Positions 49,384 through 58,887 of a DNA stretch of 64,000 bases are shown piece by piece. The notes beneath the pieces were generated by a model. The model saw only the letters and a program-made list of their open reading frames with translations. It was not told the DNA's origin and ran no database searches. Made by a program: the position numbers and the translations under genes. The DNA comes from a virus: positions 1 to 64,000 of the IMG/VR virus record IMGVR_UViG_3300020442_000509. One strand, written 5' to 3'. Each line of letters starts with the position of its first letter. Positions within the stretch are counted from its first letter, which is position 1.

Positions 49384-50043
49384 TCAGTTTTCCACAACGT
49401 TTTCCACAATGGGTGCGGAAACTGTGGAATACACATCCAAAACTAGAGAGAATCGTGGTACACTACCATCGTTCCATACCCTGTGTTTCTTCTTACTTCT
49501 AAAGATCATGAAGTCATTTTCCTTGAAGTATCTACGTAGTGCGCGTTTCTCTGTCTCCATAACATCTAAGTACGCACCACCATCTGTCTTGACATTCCAG
49601 AACACACGATGCTGTATTGTCTGTTCATCTGGATCATCATCCCAATGCCAATCTAGTCCATACTCTGGATCTAGTCTTGTGAATCCACAGTAATGAGTAT
49701 GACCAATGAACTCCAGTATCTTACATGTCTTAGGCATCTGTACACTGTTAGGTGTATACCTTTGTCCATTGTATATGAGTGGAGCTAGATGCCATCCTCT
49801 GTCATTAGTTGTTGATGCCTCAGCATACTCTTTCGCTAGTATAGGATACCCTTGTCCATTCTTCTTGATGTACTTGTCTTGATAGTCAGAGAAGTCCTTA
49901 TACTCTAGTTGAGCATTGTCGAACTCCTCTCTGATGACATCTTGGAATTTGGGTAATACTAGCAGTCTCTTTGTTAGTTGTTCAGGCTTAAGGAATGAGC
50001 GCTCTGTTAGTTGTACCATACTGTGAATAGAGTTTAGCGTCAC
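49384..50043 (-). CDS. Fe(II)/2-oxoglutarate oxygenase, aspartyl/asparaginyl beta-hydroxylase-like
   Basis: 219 aa. The cupin core shows GLDWHWDDDPDE with H133-x-D135, then HRVFWNVKTDGGAYLDVME, YFKENDFMIFRSKKKHRVWN with H187, and VPRFSLVLDV with R197. In the AspH-like family, H-x-D plus the distal H bind iron, and the Arg about ten residues after the distal H binds 2-oxoglutarate. The spacing here fits. The target is unknown; in cyanophages such oxygenases are common and mostly uncharacterised. The start region overlaps the 65 aa gene by 56 bases. A second ATG at residue 9 reduces this to 32. Confidence 0.75.
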   Translation of the reverse strand: MTLNSIHSMVQLTERSFLKPEQLTKRLLVLPKFQDVIREEFDNAQLEYKDFSDYQDKYIKKNGQGYPILAKEYAEASTTNDRGWHLAPLIYNGQRYTPNSVQMPKTCKILEFIGHTHYCGFTRLDPEYGLDWHWDDDPDEQTIQHRVFWNVKTDGGAYLDVMETEKRALRRYFKENDFMIFRSKKKHRVWNDGSVPRFSLVLDVYSTVSAPIVENVVEN

Positions 50044-51275: not shown

Positions 51276-51449
51276 TCAGCAGTGCCCAGCACGTGATGCT
51301 AGACAGTCTGTCAACTGTCTCACAATGTCCCCATCCTTCACTTGGTGTTGCCATGCTAGCTGGCGTGTCATGCGGGCATCAGTGCCCCACAACACATCGA
51401 TCAAGAACTTGATCTGATTCTCAGTTAGATTAACGTCAACCGAACGCAT
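51276..51449 (-). CDS. Unknown small protein, 57 aa
   Basis: MRSVDVNLTENQIKFLIDVL then WGTDARMTRQLAWQHQVKDG and the end TDCLASRAGHC. Helical. The ATG lies inside the end of the oxygenase gene (overlap 14 bases), with GGAGGTGAC about five bases upstream, a strong SD. It is too short for many gene finders, but the SD and overlap make it convincing. Confidence 0.65.
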   Translation of the reverse strand: MRSVDVNLTENQIKFLIDVLWGTDARMTRQLAWQHQVKDGDIVRQLTDCLASRAGHC

Positions 51450-52131
51450 CTAAGTCACCTCCAGGTCTTGTAGTTTGTTTACCCATCATACCCTGATGAT
51501 ATGGTTTTTGTCCAGTGTTTATCTTCGCATCACCATGATTGTGCTTTGTCATCCATCCCAGTGGCGTGTTGTCCAAGTCTACGGTGACATTGAACGATGC
51601 TACCGTACGCTTGACATCACTCAGGTTAGGTTGAGTATAGTGGAGCACAAATGATGGGAACAGGATAAGATCACCTTCCTTCACCTCTGGCATGTAACAC
51701 AGTTGCATACCTGTGATGAAATGATTGAATGGTGAGACAAATACTGTGCTGGTGTGAACACTAGGATCATACTCAATGTAGAGCACAGCACTCCATCCAC
51801 CATGACCATGAGTATGGATTGGATGGTACATCTTATTGTACGCTCGTTCAAACCATGTACGCACAATTACAGGATCACAGCCTAGATCTCGCGCAAACTG
51901 TCGCATCTCATCCTTCACCAGACCACGCACAGTCTCCAGATACTTTGACTGTGGATTGTACAGGTCTAGTTGTTCATCAGGTGTCTTCTCATAACTGTAG
52001 TCAGAGTACACACATTCTTCACCTAGCTCGAGCACTTGCTGCTCCAGTAGATCAAGAAATCCTTTCTTCTTTTGTTCCCAGTTGGAGAGAGAATACTTCA
52101 CAACTGGGATGCTGAACATAGTTTCAATCAT
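51436..52131 (-). CDS. 2OG-Fe(II) oxygenase-like protein, 231 aa
   Basis: Preferred start MIETMFSIPVVKYSLSNWEQ (GAGGGG upstream). An in-frame extension to 52218 overlaps the helicase gene and is not needed. The family pattern is clear: WFERAYNKMYHPIHTHGHGG, SAVLYIEYDPSVHTSTVFVS, VKEGDLILFPSFVLHYTQPN and KRTVASFNVTV. Distal His is H164 and the likely 2OG-binding Arg is R175. The proximal site reads H106-x-H108, not H-x-D, so the iron ligands are not the textbook set. I know such proteins as common cyanophage 'putative 2OG-Fe(II) oxygenases' of unknown substrate. Confidence 0.76.
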   Translation of the reverse strand: MIETMFSIPVVKYSLSNWEQKKKGFLDLLEQQVLELGEECVYSDYSYEKTPDEQLDLYNPQSKYLETVRGLVKDEMRQFARDLGCDPVIVRTWFERAYNKMYHPIHTHGHGGWSAVLYIEYDPSVHTSTVFVSPFNHFITGMQLCYMPEVKEGDLILFPSFVLHYTQPNLSDVKRTVASFNVTVDLDNTPLGWMTKHNHGDAKINTGQKPYHQGMMGKQTTRPGGDLDAFG

Positions 52132-52165
52132 GCTCTGAGACCCCTCTAGAATCGCCTGTAACGTG

Positions 52166-53404
52166 TCAGACCCAGCTGGTTGCTGGCATACCCTTGGTGA
52201 ACACACAATCGACCACACGCTGGAGTCGGTTGCTGATCTGACGCCCTGTGTTCTGATAGACAGGGACAGTCACGAAACCTGTGGGTTTGATGTAATTAGC
52301 ATAGCATGTCGGGCGGAGCGCACCACTGCTGATACGTTGCGCGTCCTGACGATCAAGGCGGATCACACGACCAATAGTCTGCGCCATCTCGATCACAGGA
52401 AGCTGACGCAGCAGGATCACGTGCGTCAGACCAGGGACATTGATACCCTCACTGAGGATAGAATAGTGGAACAACACGAAATTCTTGTTCGGATCAAGAC
52501 CCCAGGCGTGGAGAGTGTTGAAGAACTCGTCACGTGTTACCTTCTTACCGTCAATAATAGCACCATCCTTGGATGTAATGCTCATGACACTATAACCACG
52601 CTCGTAGAGATCCGCGAGCACAAGACTGTTAGCGAACATGTGCTTAATGATACGCGCACTAGGAGCAGCAACCAACACTTTCTGAGCAACATTGTCATCG
52701 AGACTGTCAACAACAGTGGTCACAGTGTTAGCATCAGTCAGTGCTACTGTCTCTTTCTTGCGCTCATAGGGCAGTTCAGTCACCTTGACAGTGGGAGGGA
52801 TGATAGAACCACACTCGATAAGCTCCTGAGCAGCAACAGTGATCAGGTTGTTACCATAGATCTGAGCATTGTTCATGCCACGCTTACCATTCTTGGCAAA
52901 CTTAGGTGTGGCAGTGAAGAAGAATGCGCGGTCAGCATCAACAGCAGCAAGAGCAACAACAGGGAAGAAGTTGCGTTGTACACTGTTGTGCGCTTCGTCA
53001 CAGTACAGAGCGTTGATCTTGATACCAGCGTCAACAATACGGTGGAGAGAGTTGTATGTGCTGAAGATAATCACATGCTCATTGACATGGTGACACATAC
53101 GAGTGAACAGATTGATGCGATCAGACTTGGTAGTCTTGAAGTGCTTAGTCTCACCACTGTGAACATGGAGGACATTGGCATTCTTGACCTGCTCCATGAA
53201 CTCTTCACAGAGTTGAATGGCAAGCATGATGCGGGGAGCAACAACAACAATAGTCTGTGGCTCTGTAGCAGTGTCAAGGTGGTTGATCACATCGTTGATC
53301 ATACACAGAGTCTTGCCACCACCAGTGGGGATGTACACGGTGCCACGCTCGTTAGAGCGGAGGGCATCGACTGTGCGTTGCTGGTGGGGGCGGAGGGAAT
53401 ACAT
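52166..53404 (-). CDS. SF2 DNA/RNA helicase, DEAH type, 412 aa
   Basis: Motif I PTGGGKT at 26-32, motif II DEAH at 136-139, motif III TATP at 164-167 and motif VI QTIGRVIR at 342-349 are all intact. The Q-tip-like start MYSLRPHQQRTVDAL is typical of SF2 helicases of the type III restriction/UvsW-like group. T4 UvsW unwinds branched DNA and acts in recombination-dependent replication. Whether this is the UvsW counterpart or an additional helicase cannot be told from this window. The start at 53404 is preferred because the earlier ATG at 53434 lies on the -10 box. A terminator and promoter directly upstream make this a new transcription unit. Confidence 0.85.
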   Translation of the reverse strand: MYSLRPHQQRTVDALRSNERGTVYIPTGGGKTLCMINDVINHLDTATEPQTIVVVAPRIMLAIQLCEEFMEQVKNANVLHVHSGETKHFKTTKSDRINLFTRMCHHVNEHVIIFSTYNSLHRIVDAGIKINALYCDEAHNSVQRNFFPVVALAAVDADRAFFFTATPKFAKNGKRGMNNAQIYGNNLITVAAQELIECGSIIPPTVKVTELPYERKKETVALTDANTVTTVVDSLDDNVAQKVLVAAPSARIIKHMFANSLVLADLYERGYSVMSITSKDGAIIDGKKVTRDEFFNTLHAWGLDPNKNFVLFHYSILSEGINVPGLTHVILLRQLPVIEMAQTIGRVIRLDRQDAQRISSGALRPTCYANYIKPTGFVTVPVYQNTGRQISNRLQRVVDCVFTKGMPATSWV

Positions 53405-53425
53405 GCTGTCGTCGTCAATAGAGAT

Positions 53426-53431
53426 ATTATA
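53426..53431 (-). promoter_or_regulatory. Sigma-70-like -10 box for the helicase gene
   Basis: TATAAT on the minus strand, 21 bases before the ATG at 53404 and directly after the terminator 53437-53462. It decides the helicase start, because the in-frame ATG at 53434 overlaps the box. Confidence 0.55.
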
Positions 53432-53436
53432 CACAT

Positions 53437-54609: not shown

Positions 54610-55044
54610 CTATACTACCAGGTTCAAGTCCCTGATAGCCCTGGCAGCAATGCGACCCTCCAGAAAGTGCGCTGCTTGCTCCCAAGGTTGATCAGCATAG
54701 CATGTATCGCTTGGAACGTGCTTACGTGCCCAGTAGTTTTTGTTGTACTTCGTGACATGCTCACGATGTACTCGCTGCTGGACGTGGATCAACTCATGTA
54801 CAAGTGTAGTGATGAAGTCGATTGTTGTCAAGCGGTTGTGGATGTTGATCTCGAATGCCCGTGGACGTGAAACGCTGTCCACAATACAGCAGGTGCCATA
54901 GTCACCTTCACGTAACATACCACGGGCAATAAAGTCGATACTGATCTTATGCTTGCCGATGTAGGTTTTGGCAAACCAATCAGTGATCTGTCTCGTCAAA
55001 TTACGTCGCCCATTAGCTCCTTTGAAATAATATGCGACAGTCAT
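54610..55044 (-). CDS. Zinc metallopeptidase-like protein, HELIH motif, 144 aa
   Basis: Preferred start MTVAYYFKGANGRRNLTRQ at 55044, five bases after the previous stop; a GTG at 55071 would overlap that gene. The zincin motif LVHELIHVQQ has H83-E84-x-x-H87, and a later PWEQAAH offers E122 as third ligand. The pattern resembles SprT-like and other small phage peptidases. Substrate unknown: removal of DNA-protein crosslinks (SprT-like) or cleavage of a host factor are both possible. The gap 54490-54609 downstream holds only the SD of the next gene and no other feature I can see. Confidence 0.68.
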   Translation of the reverse strand: MTVAYYFKGANGRRNLTRQITDWFAKTYIGKHKISIDFIARGMLREGDYGTCCIVDSVSRPRAFEINIHNRLTTIDFITTLVHELIHVQQRVHREHVTKYNKNYWARKHVPSDTCYADQPWEQAAHFLEGRIAARAIRDLNLVV

Positions 55045-55048
55045 GATG

Positions 55049-55210
55049 TTAGAGAAGAGTGAGACGGACACGATAGTCTTCTAGACGACGGATCAGATCA
55101 GAGTGACTGACGCCGACTAGCTCCACCTGCTCAGACTTGGCAATCTTCCAACCGTCAGTTGAACGAAGGAGTTTGAGGAGGTGATCGACTTCTTGAAGCG
55201 TAAGGGTCAT
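55049..55210 (-). CDS. Small helical protein, 53 aa
   Basis: MTLTLQEVDHLLKLLRSTDG then WKIAKSEQVELVGVSHSDLI and the end RRLEDYRVRLTLL. It reads as helix-turn-helix-like segments with regular leucines. A TATAAT box 14 bases upstream overlaps the stop codon of the methyltransferase. Together with the peptidase it may form a two-gene unit. No family recognised. Confidence 0.64.
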   Translation of the reverse strand: MTLTLQEVDHLLKLLRSTDGWKIAKSEQVELVGVSHSDLIRRLEDYRVRLTLL

Positions 55211-55224
55211 TTGCTTACCTGTAA

Positions 55225-55230
55225 ATTATA
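55225..55230 (-). promoter_or_regulatory. Sigma-70-like -10 box overlapping the methyltransferase stop codon
   Basis: GTGTATAATTTAC on the minus strand. The TAA of the box is the stop codon of the methyltransferase. It lies 14 bases before the ATG at 55210 and would drive the 53 aa and peptidase genes. Confidence 0.5.
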
Positions 55231-56104
55231 CACCTGGCAGGGCGGTGACCATCACTGTATCGTCCACTTTGACGTCCGCACACCGCTGGTTCGCAATGTT
55301 ACAGTAGTCCTCAGACAGATCGATGCCAATGAAGTCTCGCTCAGTGTTGAGCGCAGCAACTCCTGTGGTGCCAGAACCACAGAAGGGATCTAATACAAGT
55401 CCTCCGTGAGGAGAATATACCTTAATTAGGTATTCCATCAACGCAATAGGTTTGACGGTTGGATGATTATTGTTCTCACCCTTTTCTTTTCTAGTGGCTC
55501 GTGGAGCATAGAAATACTTTTGATGTGCCTCATTAACCTCGCCAATGATGTTGCTAGGATAGCGACCATCAGGATTAGCGTCAACAGTACCATACTCAGA
55601 CTGTGTGCCAGTAGTTTTACCATCCTTACCAAATGTACGGCGCTTGGCACCACCTGCTACCCAACCTGTAGGAGGTTTGCCCTCCCATGGGACACGAGTG
55701 GTGTCAACGTCAATGATACCACAACCCCACTTGTCAAAGTTAGATTGTAATGTACCTTCGTAAGGTTTCTGTGCTACCACGATAGGTTCATGAGCAGGCT
55801 TCAACCTGTTGTGCTTAGGCATCTTGGTGGTAGTCATCCACATGATCTGATCCTGAATGAGGAACCCAGCATCCTCTACTGCTACTGCCAGACGATGATA
55901 CAGAGCAGGTGAACAGAATGCCAGACAGAATGCTCCAGGGCGGAGCACTCTATAGATCTCTTGCCAATACTCTACACTGGGGACGCTGTGATCCCAGTGT
56001 TCCATACCCATACCATAGGGTGGATCAGTAATACAAGAGTGAAAGGAATTGTCATCGTATGCTTGAAGTTCATCAAGACAGTTCCCAGTTGTGATTGAGT
56101 ACAT
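55226..56104 (-). CDS. DNA N6-adenine or N4-cytosine methyltransferase, beta class, 292 aa
   Basis: Preferred start MYSITTGNCLDELQAYDDNS at 56104. Motif IV SCITDPPYG (DPPY at 27-30) comes before motif X/I, where HPTVKPIALMEYLIKVYS is followed by GGLVLDPFCGSGTTGVAA (DPFCGSGTT from 239) and FIGIDLSEDY. This IV-to-I order defines the beta class. The middle part (about 100-200; GWVAGGAKRRTFGKDGKTTG) is the probable target-recognition region. It overlaps the nuclease-like gene by 32 bases, the usual layout of a type II restriction-modification pair. It would protect phage DNA from a matching nuclease, its own or a host one. The target site cannot be read from sequence. Confidence 0.88.
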   Translation of the reverse strand: MYSITTGNCLDELQAYDDNSFHSCITDPPYGMGMEHWDHSVPSVEYWQEIYRVLRPGAFCLAFCSPALYHRLAVAVEDAGFLIQDQIMWMTTTKMPKHNRLKPAHEPIVVAQKPYEGTLQSNFDKWGCGIIDVDTTRVPWEGKPPTGWVAGGAKRRTFGKDGKTTGTQSEYGTVDANPDGRYPSNIIGEVNEAHQKYFYAPRATRKEKGENNNHPTVKPIALMEYLIKVYSPHGGLVLDPFCGSGTTGVAALNTERDFIGIDLSEDYCNIANQRCADVKVDDTVMVTALPGV

Positions 56105-56621
56105 TTGACTCGCAGCGATTACGTTGAGCATGGGTGAAGTAGTCTTTTTTGTCCTTACCACCTGATTGAGTATACATGGCACGCATGTAGAAGTCAAAAC
56201 CTCTATCATCCTCCTGCCACTCTTCATCAAGTTGGTATGTCTTGACCACAGCATTGAGATCTTCTACGAGACGCTCATACTGTGCTCTCTTCTTCTCACT
56301 GACTACATCATCAGCAAAGAACAGTGTGGTTTCATTGTACTTAGCAGAGCTGAAGATGTACACTGAACCTTTGTGTGGCAGTCCACCATTGTAGGTAGGA
56401 TATGCCTGCTTAGATGACTTACACTCTAGGTCAATCCACTTATCAGGTTTGACCATGACACTGAAGTCAGGGAAGTTTTGTGGACCATTGGGTTGGTATT
56501 TGTACTTGATACCATGCTTCTCAAGTAGGTCCTTGACTTGTAGCTCGTGCTCAGAGTTGTCCTGAGAGTTTGGTTTGTAAGGGAGTGATAGGCACTCCCT
56601 GAAGAATGATTGGATGGACAT
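56073..56621 (-). CDS. PD-(D/E)XK nuclease, type II restriction-endonuclease-like, 182 aa
   Basis: Preferred start MSIQSFFRECLSLPYKPNSQ at 56621, 11 bases after the previous stop. The core reads NFPDFSVMVKPDKWIDLECK with P51-D52 and E66-x-K68, followed by SSKQAYPTYNGGLPHKGSVY. The run 'ECKSSK...P-x-Y-N-x-G-x-P...YIFSSAK' is typical of type II restriction enzymes, whose loop after the E-x-K holds conserved Asn and Pro. Directly upstream of, and overlapping, a methyltransferase gene, it could be the R partner. Other options are a VRR-like repair nuclease or a nuclease that breaks host DNA. All catalytic residues appear intact. Confidence 0.72.
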   Translation of the reverse strand: MSIQSFFRECLSLPYKPNSQDNSEHELQVKDLLEKHGIKYKYQPNGPQNFPDFSVMVKPDKWIDLECKSSKQAYPTYNGGLPHKGSVYIFSSAKYNETTLFFADDVVSEKKRAQYERLVEDLNAVVKTYQLDEEWQEDDRGFDFYMRAMYTQSGGKDKKDYFTHAQRNRCESNVLNHNWELS

Positions 56622-57150: not shown

Positions 57151-57465
57151 TCAGAAGTCCCACTCGGGTTCGTCTTCGTCTTCTTCACCGAACCACTGTT
57201 GATAGAAGTCTTCATCCTCTTGATCAAAGTATCTGTAGTTGTGGTTCAGAACTTTGTGACCTGACAGACTACACAATGTGATTGTACTGTCACCATCATT
57301 CATACAATAACCACGCATAAACCACTCAGTCAGTGGATGATCAGGTTCATGTTCTATGAGGATACCAAGAAGCTCCTCATATTTGTCACGTTCAAGATAC
57401 TTGAAGTGATTCCAAGGCTTACCTACGTGGTCTTGCCAGTATTCTTCCTCTCTATAATCTAGCAT
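57151..57465 (-). CDS. Unknown acidic protein, 104 aa
   Basis: Starts MLDYREEEYWQDHVGKPWNH and contains LIEHEPDHPLTEWFMRGYCM, ending with a very acidic tail (FDQEDEDFYQQWFGEEDEDE). Aromatic and acidic residues dominate, which is seen in DNA mimics and in small phage inhibitors, but this is only a compositional hint. The start overlaps the stop of the 233 aa gene by seven bases. Function unknown. Confidence 0.72.
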   Translation of the reverse strand: MLDYREEEYWQDHVGKPWNHFKYLERDKYEELLGILIEHEPDHPLTEWFMRGYCMNDGDSTITLCSLSGHKVLNHNYRYFDQEDEDFYQQWFGEEDEDEPEWDF

Positions 57466-58160
57466 TTGGGACGACGCTCCACGAGAGTAATATTTTTATT
57501 GACCCAGAACTTACAGTAATCTATCAGGCAGTCTTGTATATCGACGTCTGATAACCAATACTGTACAACGTATCCTGGTTCTTTTAACTTCAGTATACCA
57601 GGCTTTGTGATCCTAAATGGAGTGCCTGGGGTAACTTCTTGTCCATTATAGTACATATATTGTGTAGGCACAACCACGTCGATCTCATCACTCTCAGGTA
57701 CGATAGTAATCTGATCAACAACACGTAGCACCTTACGTCTATAGTATCCCAGTTCTTCATCACCAGGATCTGGACCCACACAAATACAACTGGCATTGTC
57801 AGTCAAGGCAGTCAACCTTGTCATGCCAGCAATCTTAAAGTTTAGATATGTGCCAGGCTTATACACCAGAGCATGAGGAACACCAGCGGTTTCACTCATC
57901 CAGATGCCCTCAGTGAATAACAGGCAGCGATTGTGTAGATAAAACTTTTCCAGATAAGCACGAGCAGGCTTATCATTCTCATGACCAGTGAGGTTATACT
58001 CAGTGAGCATAGCCTCAACAGCATCCATTGGAATAGGGATTACTTTGTTCTCAGGGTCATCCCCGATGAACTTAAATCCCTTCTTTTGATTACGATAGTA
58101 TAATGTAGTGAGTTTATTTCCAAAGTCTTGGATTGAACTCGGTTCATTCAGTTGGGGCAT
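57459..58160 (-). CDS. Unknown protein, 233 aa, paralogue of the 247 aa gene
   Basis: Starts MPQLNEPSSIQDFGNKLTTL. The central part FYLHNRCLLFTEGIWMSETA, then VPHALVYKPGTYLNFKIAGM, TRLTALTDNASCICVGPDPG matches the same places in the 247 aa protein (HHRSVVFTSTWKSDSINQPF, HSILYKAGAMTTFKMPHVTR, LTSLEKDGSSMCVGPKDGTQ). The C-terminus ends NKNITLVERRPKC. It overlaps the 247 aa gene by 17 bases. A role with the nearby fibre or adhesin is inferred only from position. Confidence 0.76.
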   Translation of the reverse strand: MPQLNEPSSIQDFGNKLTTLYYRNQKKGFKFIGDDPENKVIPIPMDAVEAMLTEYNLTGHENDKPARAYLEKFYLHNRCLLFTEGIWMSETAGVPHALVYKPGTYLNFKIAGMTRLTALTDNASCICVGPDPGDEELGYYRRKVLRVVDQITIVPESDEIDVVVPTQYMYYNGQEVTPGTPFRITKPGILKLKEPGYVVQYWLSDVDIQDCLIDYCKFWVNKNITLVERRPKC

Positions 58161-58887
58161 TACGAGGGATTATGCTAATAAGACCGTCTTCAAATTGCTG
58201 TAACCACTCACGACATACTCTCAGTACATCCACAGGGTTAGGTGTAAATTCTAGCATGTACATTGGTTTTGTCAATGTAATCTTCTGATAACCATCAACA
58301 GTACACTTAAATGCGAAGTGTTGCTTCATCATGGTGCCTTGGATGAGACAATCCTCTGTAGGTACCAGAATACTACCCACCGCCTTCGGTTTGAAGTTGG
58401 TGTCATTATCGAGTTTATGGAGGAATCTATCATATTGTGTGCCATCCTTGGGACCTACACACATACTACTACCATCTTTCTCAAGTGATGTAAGACGTGT
58501 TACATGTGGCATCTTAAATGTAGTCATAGCACCTGCTTTGTACAGGATACTATGAAATGGTTGATTGATAGAGTCACTCTTCCATGTGCTAGTAAACACC
58601 ACACTTCTGTGATGAATACAAGCATCAGTCATACCATGTTTTCTGATTAATTCTTCTTGCTGAGCTACAAGTCCCTTTGGATTCTTTTTAACCCAGTCAG
58701 ATAGTACATCAACACCATCACTTACCAGTGGTGGTTTGATCTCTTCGATGTCAGGATCATTCCCAAAGATCTTCTTACCTTCACGAGCACCAGTACAGCT
58801 CAGTACATCAAATCCATGCTGCTCGATAAGTTTGCCGAATCCATATTCAGCAATAGCATATGTTTTATTCTCTGAAGGATCCCACAT
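58144..58887 (-). CDS. Unknown protein, 247 aa, paralogue of the 233 aa gene
   Basis: Starts MWDPSENKTYAIAEYGFGKL. It shares with the 233 aa protein the H-x-R, S-x-L-Y-K-A-G, R-L-T-x-L and C-V-G-P motifs and a C-terminal strand-rich half (SILVPTEDCLIQGTMMKQHF, ITLTKPMYMLEFTPNPVDVL). No catalytic motif is obvious, although the conserved H and C residues might bind a metal. It is joined to the 161 aa gene by TAATG at 58887. Confidence 0.76.
   Translation of the reverse strand: MWDPSENKTYAIAEYGFGKLIEQHGFDVLSCTGAREGKKIFGNDPDIEEIKPPLVSDGVDVLSDWVKKNPKGLVAQQEELIRKHGMTDACIHHRSVVFTSTWKSDSINQPFHSILYKAGAMTTFKMPHVTRLTSLEKDGSSMCVGPKDGTQYDRFLHKLDNDTNFKPKAVGSILVPTEDCLIQGTMMKQHFAFKCTVDGYQKITLTKPMYMLEFTPNPVDVLRVCREWLQQFEDGLISIIPRNAPTE

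What the first reader, a model, noticed from the sequence alone, without database searches (positions are those of the whole stretch)
55226..56621. Overlapping restriction-type nuclease and beta-class methyltransferase genes
A 182 aa PD-(D/E)XK protein (P51-D52, E66-x-K68 and a Y-N-x-G-x-P loop) overlaps by 32 bases a complete DPPY/DPFCGSGTT methyltransferase. Phages often carry lone methyltransferases; a complete type II-like pair in a lytic T4-like phage is unusual. It could destroy host or rival-phage DNA, or act as a selfish addiction element in the virion-gene region.
Basis: partly seen in the sequence, partly recalled or inferred. Interest (0 to 1): 0.72.

Follow-up and report, generated by a model that had tools for sequence, protein, structure and literature searches.

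The report
Phage-carried restriction-modification gene pair
This virus of (probably) cyanobacteria carries a DNA-cutting enzyme overlapping a DNA-methylating enzyme, a pair found together in over a hundred related virus fragments and in some bacteria, so it is very likely a working restriction-modification system that a lytic virus turns against unprotected DNA.

Summary
In detail: a 182-aa PD-(D/E)XK nuclease (56073-56621, -) overlaps by 32 nt a complete 292-aa beta-class DNA methyltransferase (55226-56104, -). The pair is real and conserved. Of 57 viral loci found with the methyltransferase, 55 carry a nuclease of this family; the other two are uninformative. Where the nuclease lacks an adjacent methyltransferase, every contig long enough to show it carries one 9.5-14.5 kb upstream. 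E26, D52, E66 and K68 are invariant in 127-128 of 128 distinct nucleases; dN/dS is about 0.11 (nuclease) and 0.15 (methyltransferase). An AlphaFold model gives a PD-(D/E)XK fold nearest EcoRV, I-Ssp6803I and Hjc/RecU, at middling scores. Elsewhere the same nuclease family sits beside five other kinds of methyltransferase, in Brachyspira, Campylobacterota, Mycoplasmopsis and other phages. Best explanation: a type II-like restriction-modification cassette whose nuclease cuts unmethylated host or rival DNA while the methyltransferase protects phage DNA. Pairing is well supported; shared target, cleavage and role are inferred. The nuclease family is missing from Pfam, NCBIfam and PADLOC and is an unknown-function PHROG. 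Virus-borne R-M is known (chloroviruses, marseilleviruses), so this is a new variant of a known kind, recurrent in T4-like phages.

The parts
56073..56621 (-). PD-(D/E)XK nuclease, 182 aa (putative restriction endonuclease)
55226..56104 (-). beta-class DNA methyltransferase, 292 aa (start placed by homology; in-frame ATG also at 56131)
56073..56104 (-). 32-nt overlap of the two genes (possible translational coupling; 23 nt in S-SKS1)
56463..56471 (-). P51-D52-F53 catalytic motif
   Evidence: P51 and D52 invariant in 128/128 distinct homologues
56418..56426 (-). E66-C-K68 catalytic motif
   Evidence: E66 and K68 invariant in 128/128
56544..56546 (-). E26, helix glutamate of the nuclease core
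   Evidence: E in 127/128, gap in one
56376..56393 (-). Y-N-G-G-L-P loop (N78 and P82 invariant)
56015..56026 (-). DPPY (motif IV) of the methyltransferase
55364..55390 (-). DPFCGSGTT (motif I, SAM binding), after motif IV = beta order

Best explanation
A type II-like restriction-modification cassette carried by a lytic T4-like phage, probably of picocyanobacteria. The methyltransferase methylates a short site on replicating phage DNA (N6-adenine or N4-cytosine, by family). The PD-(D/E)XK nuclease cuts the same site where it is unmethylated, that is in the host chromosome (supplying nucleotides and shutting the host down) and/or in competing phage and plasmid DNA. Shown here: both genes intact, catalytic residues invariant, purifying selection, near-obligate co-occurrence, and exchange of methyltransferase partners around one nuclease family. 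Inferred: nuclease activity, shared target, protection by methylation, and the biological target.
For: 54 of 57 viral loci fetched with the methyltransferase have the nuclease by BLAST; L162 has a divergent one (HMM 5.5e-9); L182 starts 5 bp upstream and L199 is a fragmentary hit. 'Solo' nuclease contigs with at least 9.5 kb upstream sequence (G001, G002, G003, G009, G010) all carry the methyltransferase 9.5-14.5 kb upstream; those without a hit are cut under 8 kb. Catalytic residues invariant in 127-128 of 128. dN/dS 0.11 and 0.15; distances of the two proteins correlate, Mantel rho 0.76, 0 of 500 permutations. AF2 model pLDDT 85.6, pTM 0.81; EcoRV tops Foldseek and the VIA list holds EcoRV, I-Ssp6803I and Hjc at Z about 7. 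Bacterial homologues whose neighbourhoods were read (Brachyspira, Nautiliaceae, Spirochaetia, Arcobacteraceae, M. cynos) sit next to a DNA methyltransferase of varied class, except the shorter L103; so do an H. pylori phage and jumbo phages. Partner swaps within phages: L138/L140 carry another beta methyltransferase, L143/L144 a TSPPY enzyme.
Against: No recognition site could be derived; the window is not depleted of a site in a way that tracks the pair. Foldseek E-values are weak (best 0.014) and Z about 7 is middling. The distance correlation is partly shared phage ancestry. One bacterial relative (L103) has no recognisable methyltransferase in the stretch read. No methylation or cleavage data exist.
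Confidence: 0.82

Rival explanations
1. Two independent functions: the methyltransferase is an orphan anti-restriction enzyme and the nuclease a separate host-DNA degrading or recombination (Hjc/RecU-like) enzyme with no shared target.
For: Orphan phage methyltransferases are common (1682 phage records match P0002); the model resembles Holliday-junction resolvases about as well as EcoRV.
Against: Reciprocal co-occurrence even at 10 kb distance; in bacteria the same nuclease family lies beside DNA methyltransferases of several classes, which an unrelated repair nuclease would not be expected to do.
Confidence: 0.1
2. Selfish addiction cassette: kept because loss of the methyltransferase lets residual nuclease kill the genome, with no benefit to the phage.
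For: Mobile behaviour: many partners and hosts, and an extra gene inserted between the two genes in about 18 of 80 loci.
Against: A lytic phage has no segregating daughter lineage in which residual nuclease could kill losers; retention across divergent phages under strong purifying selection fits a benefit as well. Not separable from the best explanation by sequence.
Confidence: 0.12
3. Modification-dependent nuclease that cuts DNA methylated by other systems (type IV or IIM-like), with the methyltransferase unrelated.
For: VIA list includes the methylation-dependent enzymes NhoI and Eco15I at Z about 6.
Against: It would endanger the phage's own methylated DNA if targets overlap; near-obligate pairing is the usual sign of protection, not activation.
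Confidence: 0.04

Closest known systems
Type II restriction-modification systems (EcoRV-like PD-(D/E)XK orthodox enzymes)
   Same: Separate small nuclease and methyltransferase genes, adjacent and overlapping; PD...ExK core; predicted fold nearest EcoRV.
   Different: No detectable sequence match to any solved restriction enzyme and no family model in Pfam, NCBIfam or PADLOC; carried by lytic phages; specificity unknown.
Virus-borne R-M of chloroviruses and marseilleviruses (CviAI, mel_015/mel_016; PMC7253447)
   Same: Complete nuclease plus methyltransferase pair in a virus, conserved and under purifying selection; proposed roles are host-DNA recycling (chloroviruses) and virus exclusion (marseilleviruses).
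   Different: The marseillevirus and CviAI systems target GATC and belong to eukaryotic viruses; this one is in T4-like phages. Homology of the nuclease to CviAI was not tested here.
R-M-like conflict systems in jumbo phages (PMC7824862)
   Same: Same idea: a phage modification enzyme protects its DNA while a linked REase-fold domain attacks host or superinfecting DNA.
   Different: The examples described there are Mom-REase fusions; this is a two-gene methyltransferase plus nuclease pair.
PHROG 18119
   Same: P0001 matches it end to end at 5e-82.
   Different: PHROGs lists no function; the present data suggest one.

Membership tests
Type II restriction-modification | Separate nuclease and DNA methyltransferase genes, closely linked | tested here: met
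   32-nt overlap in the window; linkage in 55 of 57 loci, other two uninformative
Type II restriction-modification | Nuclease with intact catalytic core | tested here: met
   E26, D52, E66, K68 invariant; PD-(D/E)XK fold predicted
Type II restriction-modification | No ATP-dependent translocase or specificity subunit needed | tested here: met
   Neither protein has such a domain. A helicase ORF at 52166-53434 lies nearby but none is annotated beside the S-SKS1 or ACG-2014j pair
Type II restriction-modification | Nuclease and methyltransferase share a recognition site; methylation blocks cleavage | not testable with these tools
   Needs biochemistry; motif-avoidance analysis gave no site
Beta-class N6_N4 DNA methyltransferase (PF01555) | Match above cut-off with motif IV before motif I | tested here: met
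   142 bits against cut-off 26.7; DPPY residues 36-39, DPFCGSGTT residues 248-256 of P0002
PHROG 18119 | Full-length profile match | tested here: met
   5e-82 over profile positions 2-177 of 177
EcoRV-like restriction endonuclease fold | Structural similarity well above unrelated folds | tested here: inconclusive
   Foldseek E 0.014, prob 0.93; VIA Z about 7, tied with I-Ssp6803I and Hjc
Chlorovirus CviAI / marseillevirus REase family | Sequence homology to CviAI or mel_015 | not tested
   Sequences not at hand; resemblance is by function only

The most novel reading that the evidence does not exclude
One nuclease family with a fixed recognition sequence serves as the cutting half of a modular R-M cassette that accepts at least six kinds of methyltransferase, predicted to place m6A, m4C or m5C in the same site, and T4-like phages use it as an offensive weapon against host and rival phage DNA.
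Probability: 0.35. Interest if true: 0.72.

Novelty: new variant of a known kind. Interest (0 to 1): 0.58.

Why it matters
Phage methyltransferases are usually read as passive anti-restriction shields. Here a large group of them comes with a previously unlabelled nuclease, which would turn the shield into half of a weapon and offer a concrete mechanism for host-genome destruction or phage-phage exclusion in abundant aquatic viruses. It is directly testable: S-SKS1 (has the pair) and S-PM2 (no nuclease match) are both recorded on Synechococcus WH7803. It also points to a nuclease family in Brachyspira, Mycoplasmopsis and Campylobacterota that the family libraries searched here leave unnamed.

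Tried and rejected
(1) Recognition site from motif avoidance: TGCA is strongly depleted in the window (18/295) and in G018, but not in pair-carrying G019 (0.60) or S-SKS1 (0.68), so it is not a simple mark of the pair; CCGG and GGCC depletion is shared with pair-less cyanophages; GATC is depleted in bacterial carriers but little in the phages. No target assigned. (2) H. pylori literature as a route to the site of the NPPFG methyltransferase: the passages read did not link this gene to a motif. (3) 'Solo nuclease' lineages looked like evidence against R-M until the methyltransferase was found 9.5-14.5 kb upstream. (4) L162 looked like a solo methyltransferase until a divergent family nuclease was found upstream. 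(5) Sequence search of the PDB with a single sequence and a profile found no relative. (6) Pfam hits to sea anemone cytotoxin, PC-esterase and others for the nuclease are below cut-off and were ignored. (7) The top VIA row, Rep15, is tied with nuclease folds at Z under 8 and is not taken as meaningful.

Full report
Observation. On the minus strand the window encodes a 182-aa protein at 56073-56621 and, overlapping its 3' end, a DNA methyltransferase ending at 55226. The motifs reported are all present.

Identity of the parts. The methyltransferase is a beta-class enzyme: Pfam N6_N4_Mtase at 142 bits, DPPY before DPFCGSGTT. The nuclease has no curated family: nothing significant in Pfam, NCBIfam or PADLOC, no sequence relative in the PDB even with a profile, and only PHROG 18119 'unknown function' at 5e-82. 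An AlphaFold2 model from 17 window and locus sequences has pLDDT 85.6 and pTM 0.81. Its nearest solved structures are PD-(D/E)XK enzymes, EcoRV first by Foldseek (E 0.014), with EcoRV, I-Ssp6803I, Hjc and RecU tied near Z 7 by VIA-align. That is middling and supports the fold class, not membership of a particular restriction enzyme family.

Conservation. In 128 distinct homologues D52, E66 and K68 are invariant and E26 is present in all but one gapped row; P51, P75, N78, P82 and Y88 are also invariant. Among pairs of loci with nucleases 70-97% alike, median dN/dS is 0.11 for the nuclease and 0.15 for the methyltransferase. Both genes are therefore maintained for function. The nuclease diverges faster: pairs of loci whose nucleases are 30-40% identical still have methyltransferases 64% identical on average, as expected for restriction enzymes and their methyltransferases (general knowledge).

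Linkage. A scan of IMG/VR with a nuclease profile found 142 encoding stretches. Of 83 loci examined, 63 have the same methyltransferase in the flank, either overlapping or with one extra gene between. A nuclease clade without it nearby was followed up: all five long-enough contigs carry a PF01555 methyltransferase 9.5-14.5 kb upstream (distances by arithmetic), while the negative contigs end less than 8 kb upstream of the nuclease. In reverse, 54 of 57 loci fetched with the methyltransferase show the nuclease by BLAST; a 55th, L162, has a divergent family member; the remaining two cannot tell. Pairwise distances of the two proteins correlate (Mantel rho 0.76, 0 of 500 permutations as high), though shared phage ancestry contributes.

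Partner exchange. The nuclease family is not tied to one methyltransferase. Besides the window type there are: a different beta enzyme (about 32% identical to the window's) in T4-like L138 and L140; a TSPPY enzyme in L143 and L144; a 298-aa-type NPPFG enzyme in an H. pylori phage, Nautiliaceae, a Spirochaetia MAG, M. cynos and the jumbo phages Kaldavass and XbC2; a roughly 407-aa NPPY enzyme in the three Brachyspira loci read; and a C5 enzyme in Arcobacteraceae. In a tree of 56 nucleases the L138/L140 pair falls inside the set paired with window-type enzymes (fork support 89/97), with 63% nuclease identity to L192, which keeps the window-type methyltransferase; this implies a partner swap with the nuclease retained. 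The deep forks involve long branches and are unsure. The simplest reading is that the nuclease keeps its target and any methyltransferase that protects that target will do; this is inference.

Mechanism and role. The best-supported explanation is a type II-like restriction-modification cassette: the methyltransferase marks phage DNA and the nuclease cuts unmarked DNA. In a lytic phage the unmarked DNA is the host chromosome or a co-infecting genome. Precedents exist for both: chloroviruses degrade host DNA, and marseilleviruses, whose infection left host DNA intact, are proposed to exclude rivals (PMC7253447); phage-encoded R-M used against rivals is also discussed for jumbo phages (PMC7824862). 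Nothing in the sequence decides between them. An addiction role cannot be excluded but is less natural for a lytic phage.

Target site. Palindrome avoidance was examined in the window, two pair-carrying genomes of 194-200 kb, other carriers, and three pair-less cyanophages. TGCA is strikingly rare in the window and G018 but ordinary in other pair carriers, so it is not assigned to the pair. No site is proposed.

Context. The record is a 69.8-kb IMG/VR fragment whose structural genes resemble Prochlorococcus and Synechococcus T4-like phages at about 74-76% DNA identity over short stretches; no psbA-type gene was found in it, so the cyanobacterial host is likely but not shown. The pair lies among small unknown genes and a 2OG-Fe(II) oxygenase near tail-fibre genes.

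Verdict. A real, recurrent, probably active phage R-M pair with a nuclease family that the libraries searched leave unnamed: a new variant of a known kind, of moderate to good interest because it is widespread and testable with existing isolates.

Noticed in passing
window 1-64000: TGCA occurs 18 times against 295 expected, CCGG 0 of 63 and GGCC 4 of 56. TGCA avoidance is shared by G018 but not by G019, S-SKS1, P-HM1, S-PM2 or Syn9, so it is lineage-specific; its cause (possibly a host restriction system) is unknown.
   Followed up: partly
L002:5631-6584, L003:4503-5900, L043:5544-6968, L162:8811-10001: In about 18 of 80 loci an extra gene of roughly 320-470 aa sits between nuclease and methyltransferase. 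The types are hardly alike; two (L043, L056) show a sub-threshold match to the DpnI_C winged-helix domain and some look ParB-like by eye. It may be a third component of the cassette.
   Followed up: partly
L089-L098, L101: Brachyspira contigs of several species carry the nuclease; in the three loci read (B. hampsonii, B. alvinipulli, B. pilosicoli) it is followed by an NPPY-type methyltransferase, an R-M-like pair whose nuclease is left unnamed by the family libraries searched.
   Followed up: partly
L090-L102, L146: GATC is depleted (observed/expected 0.25-0.42) in the bacterial loci carrying this nuclease family; with no matched controls it cannot be tied to the nuclease.
   Followed up: partly
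window 54610-55071 (-): 153-aa protein with a VHELIHVQQ stretch (HExxH, SprT-like metallopeptidase appearance); PHROG 10499, unknown function.
   Followed up: no
window 57459-58160 and 58144-58887 (-): Two neighbouring genes that overlap slightly and both match PHROG 16242: a tandem duplication of an unknown phage gene.
   Followed up: no
window 49384-50043 and 51436-52218 (-): 51436-52218 is a 2OG-Fe(II) oxygenase of PHROG 81 near the pair; 49384-50043 looks like another by eye, not tested. A 2OG-Fe(II) oxygenase is also annotated about 3.7 kb from the nuclease in S-CAM4 and ACG-2014j.
   Followed up: no
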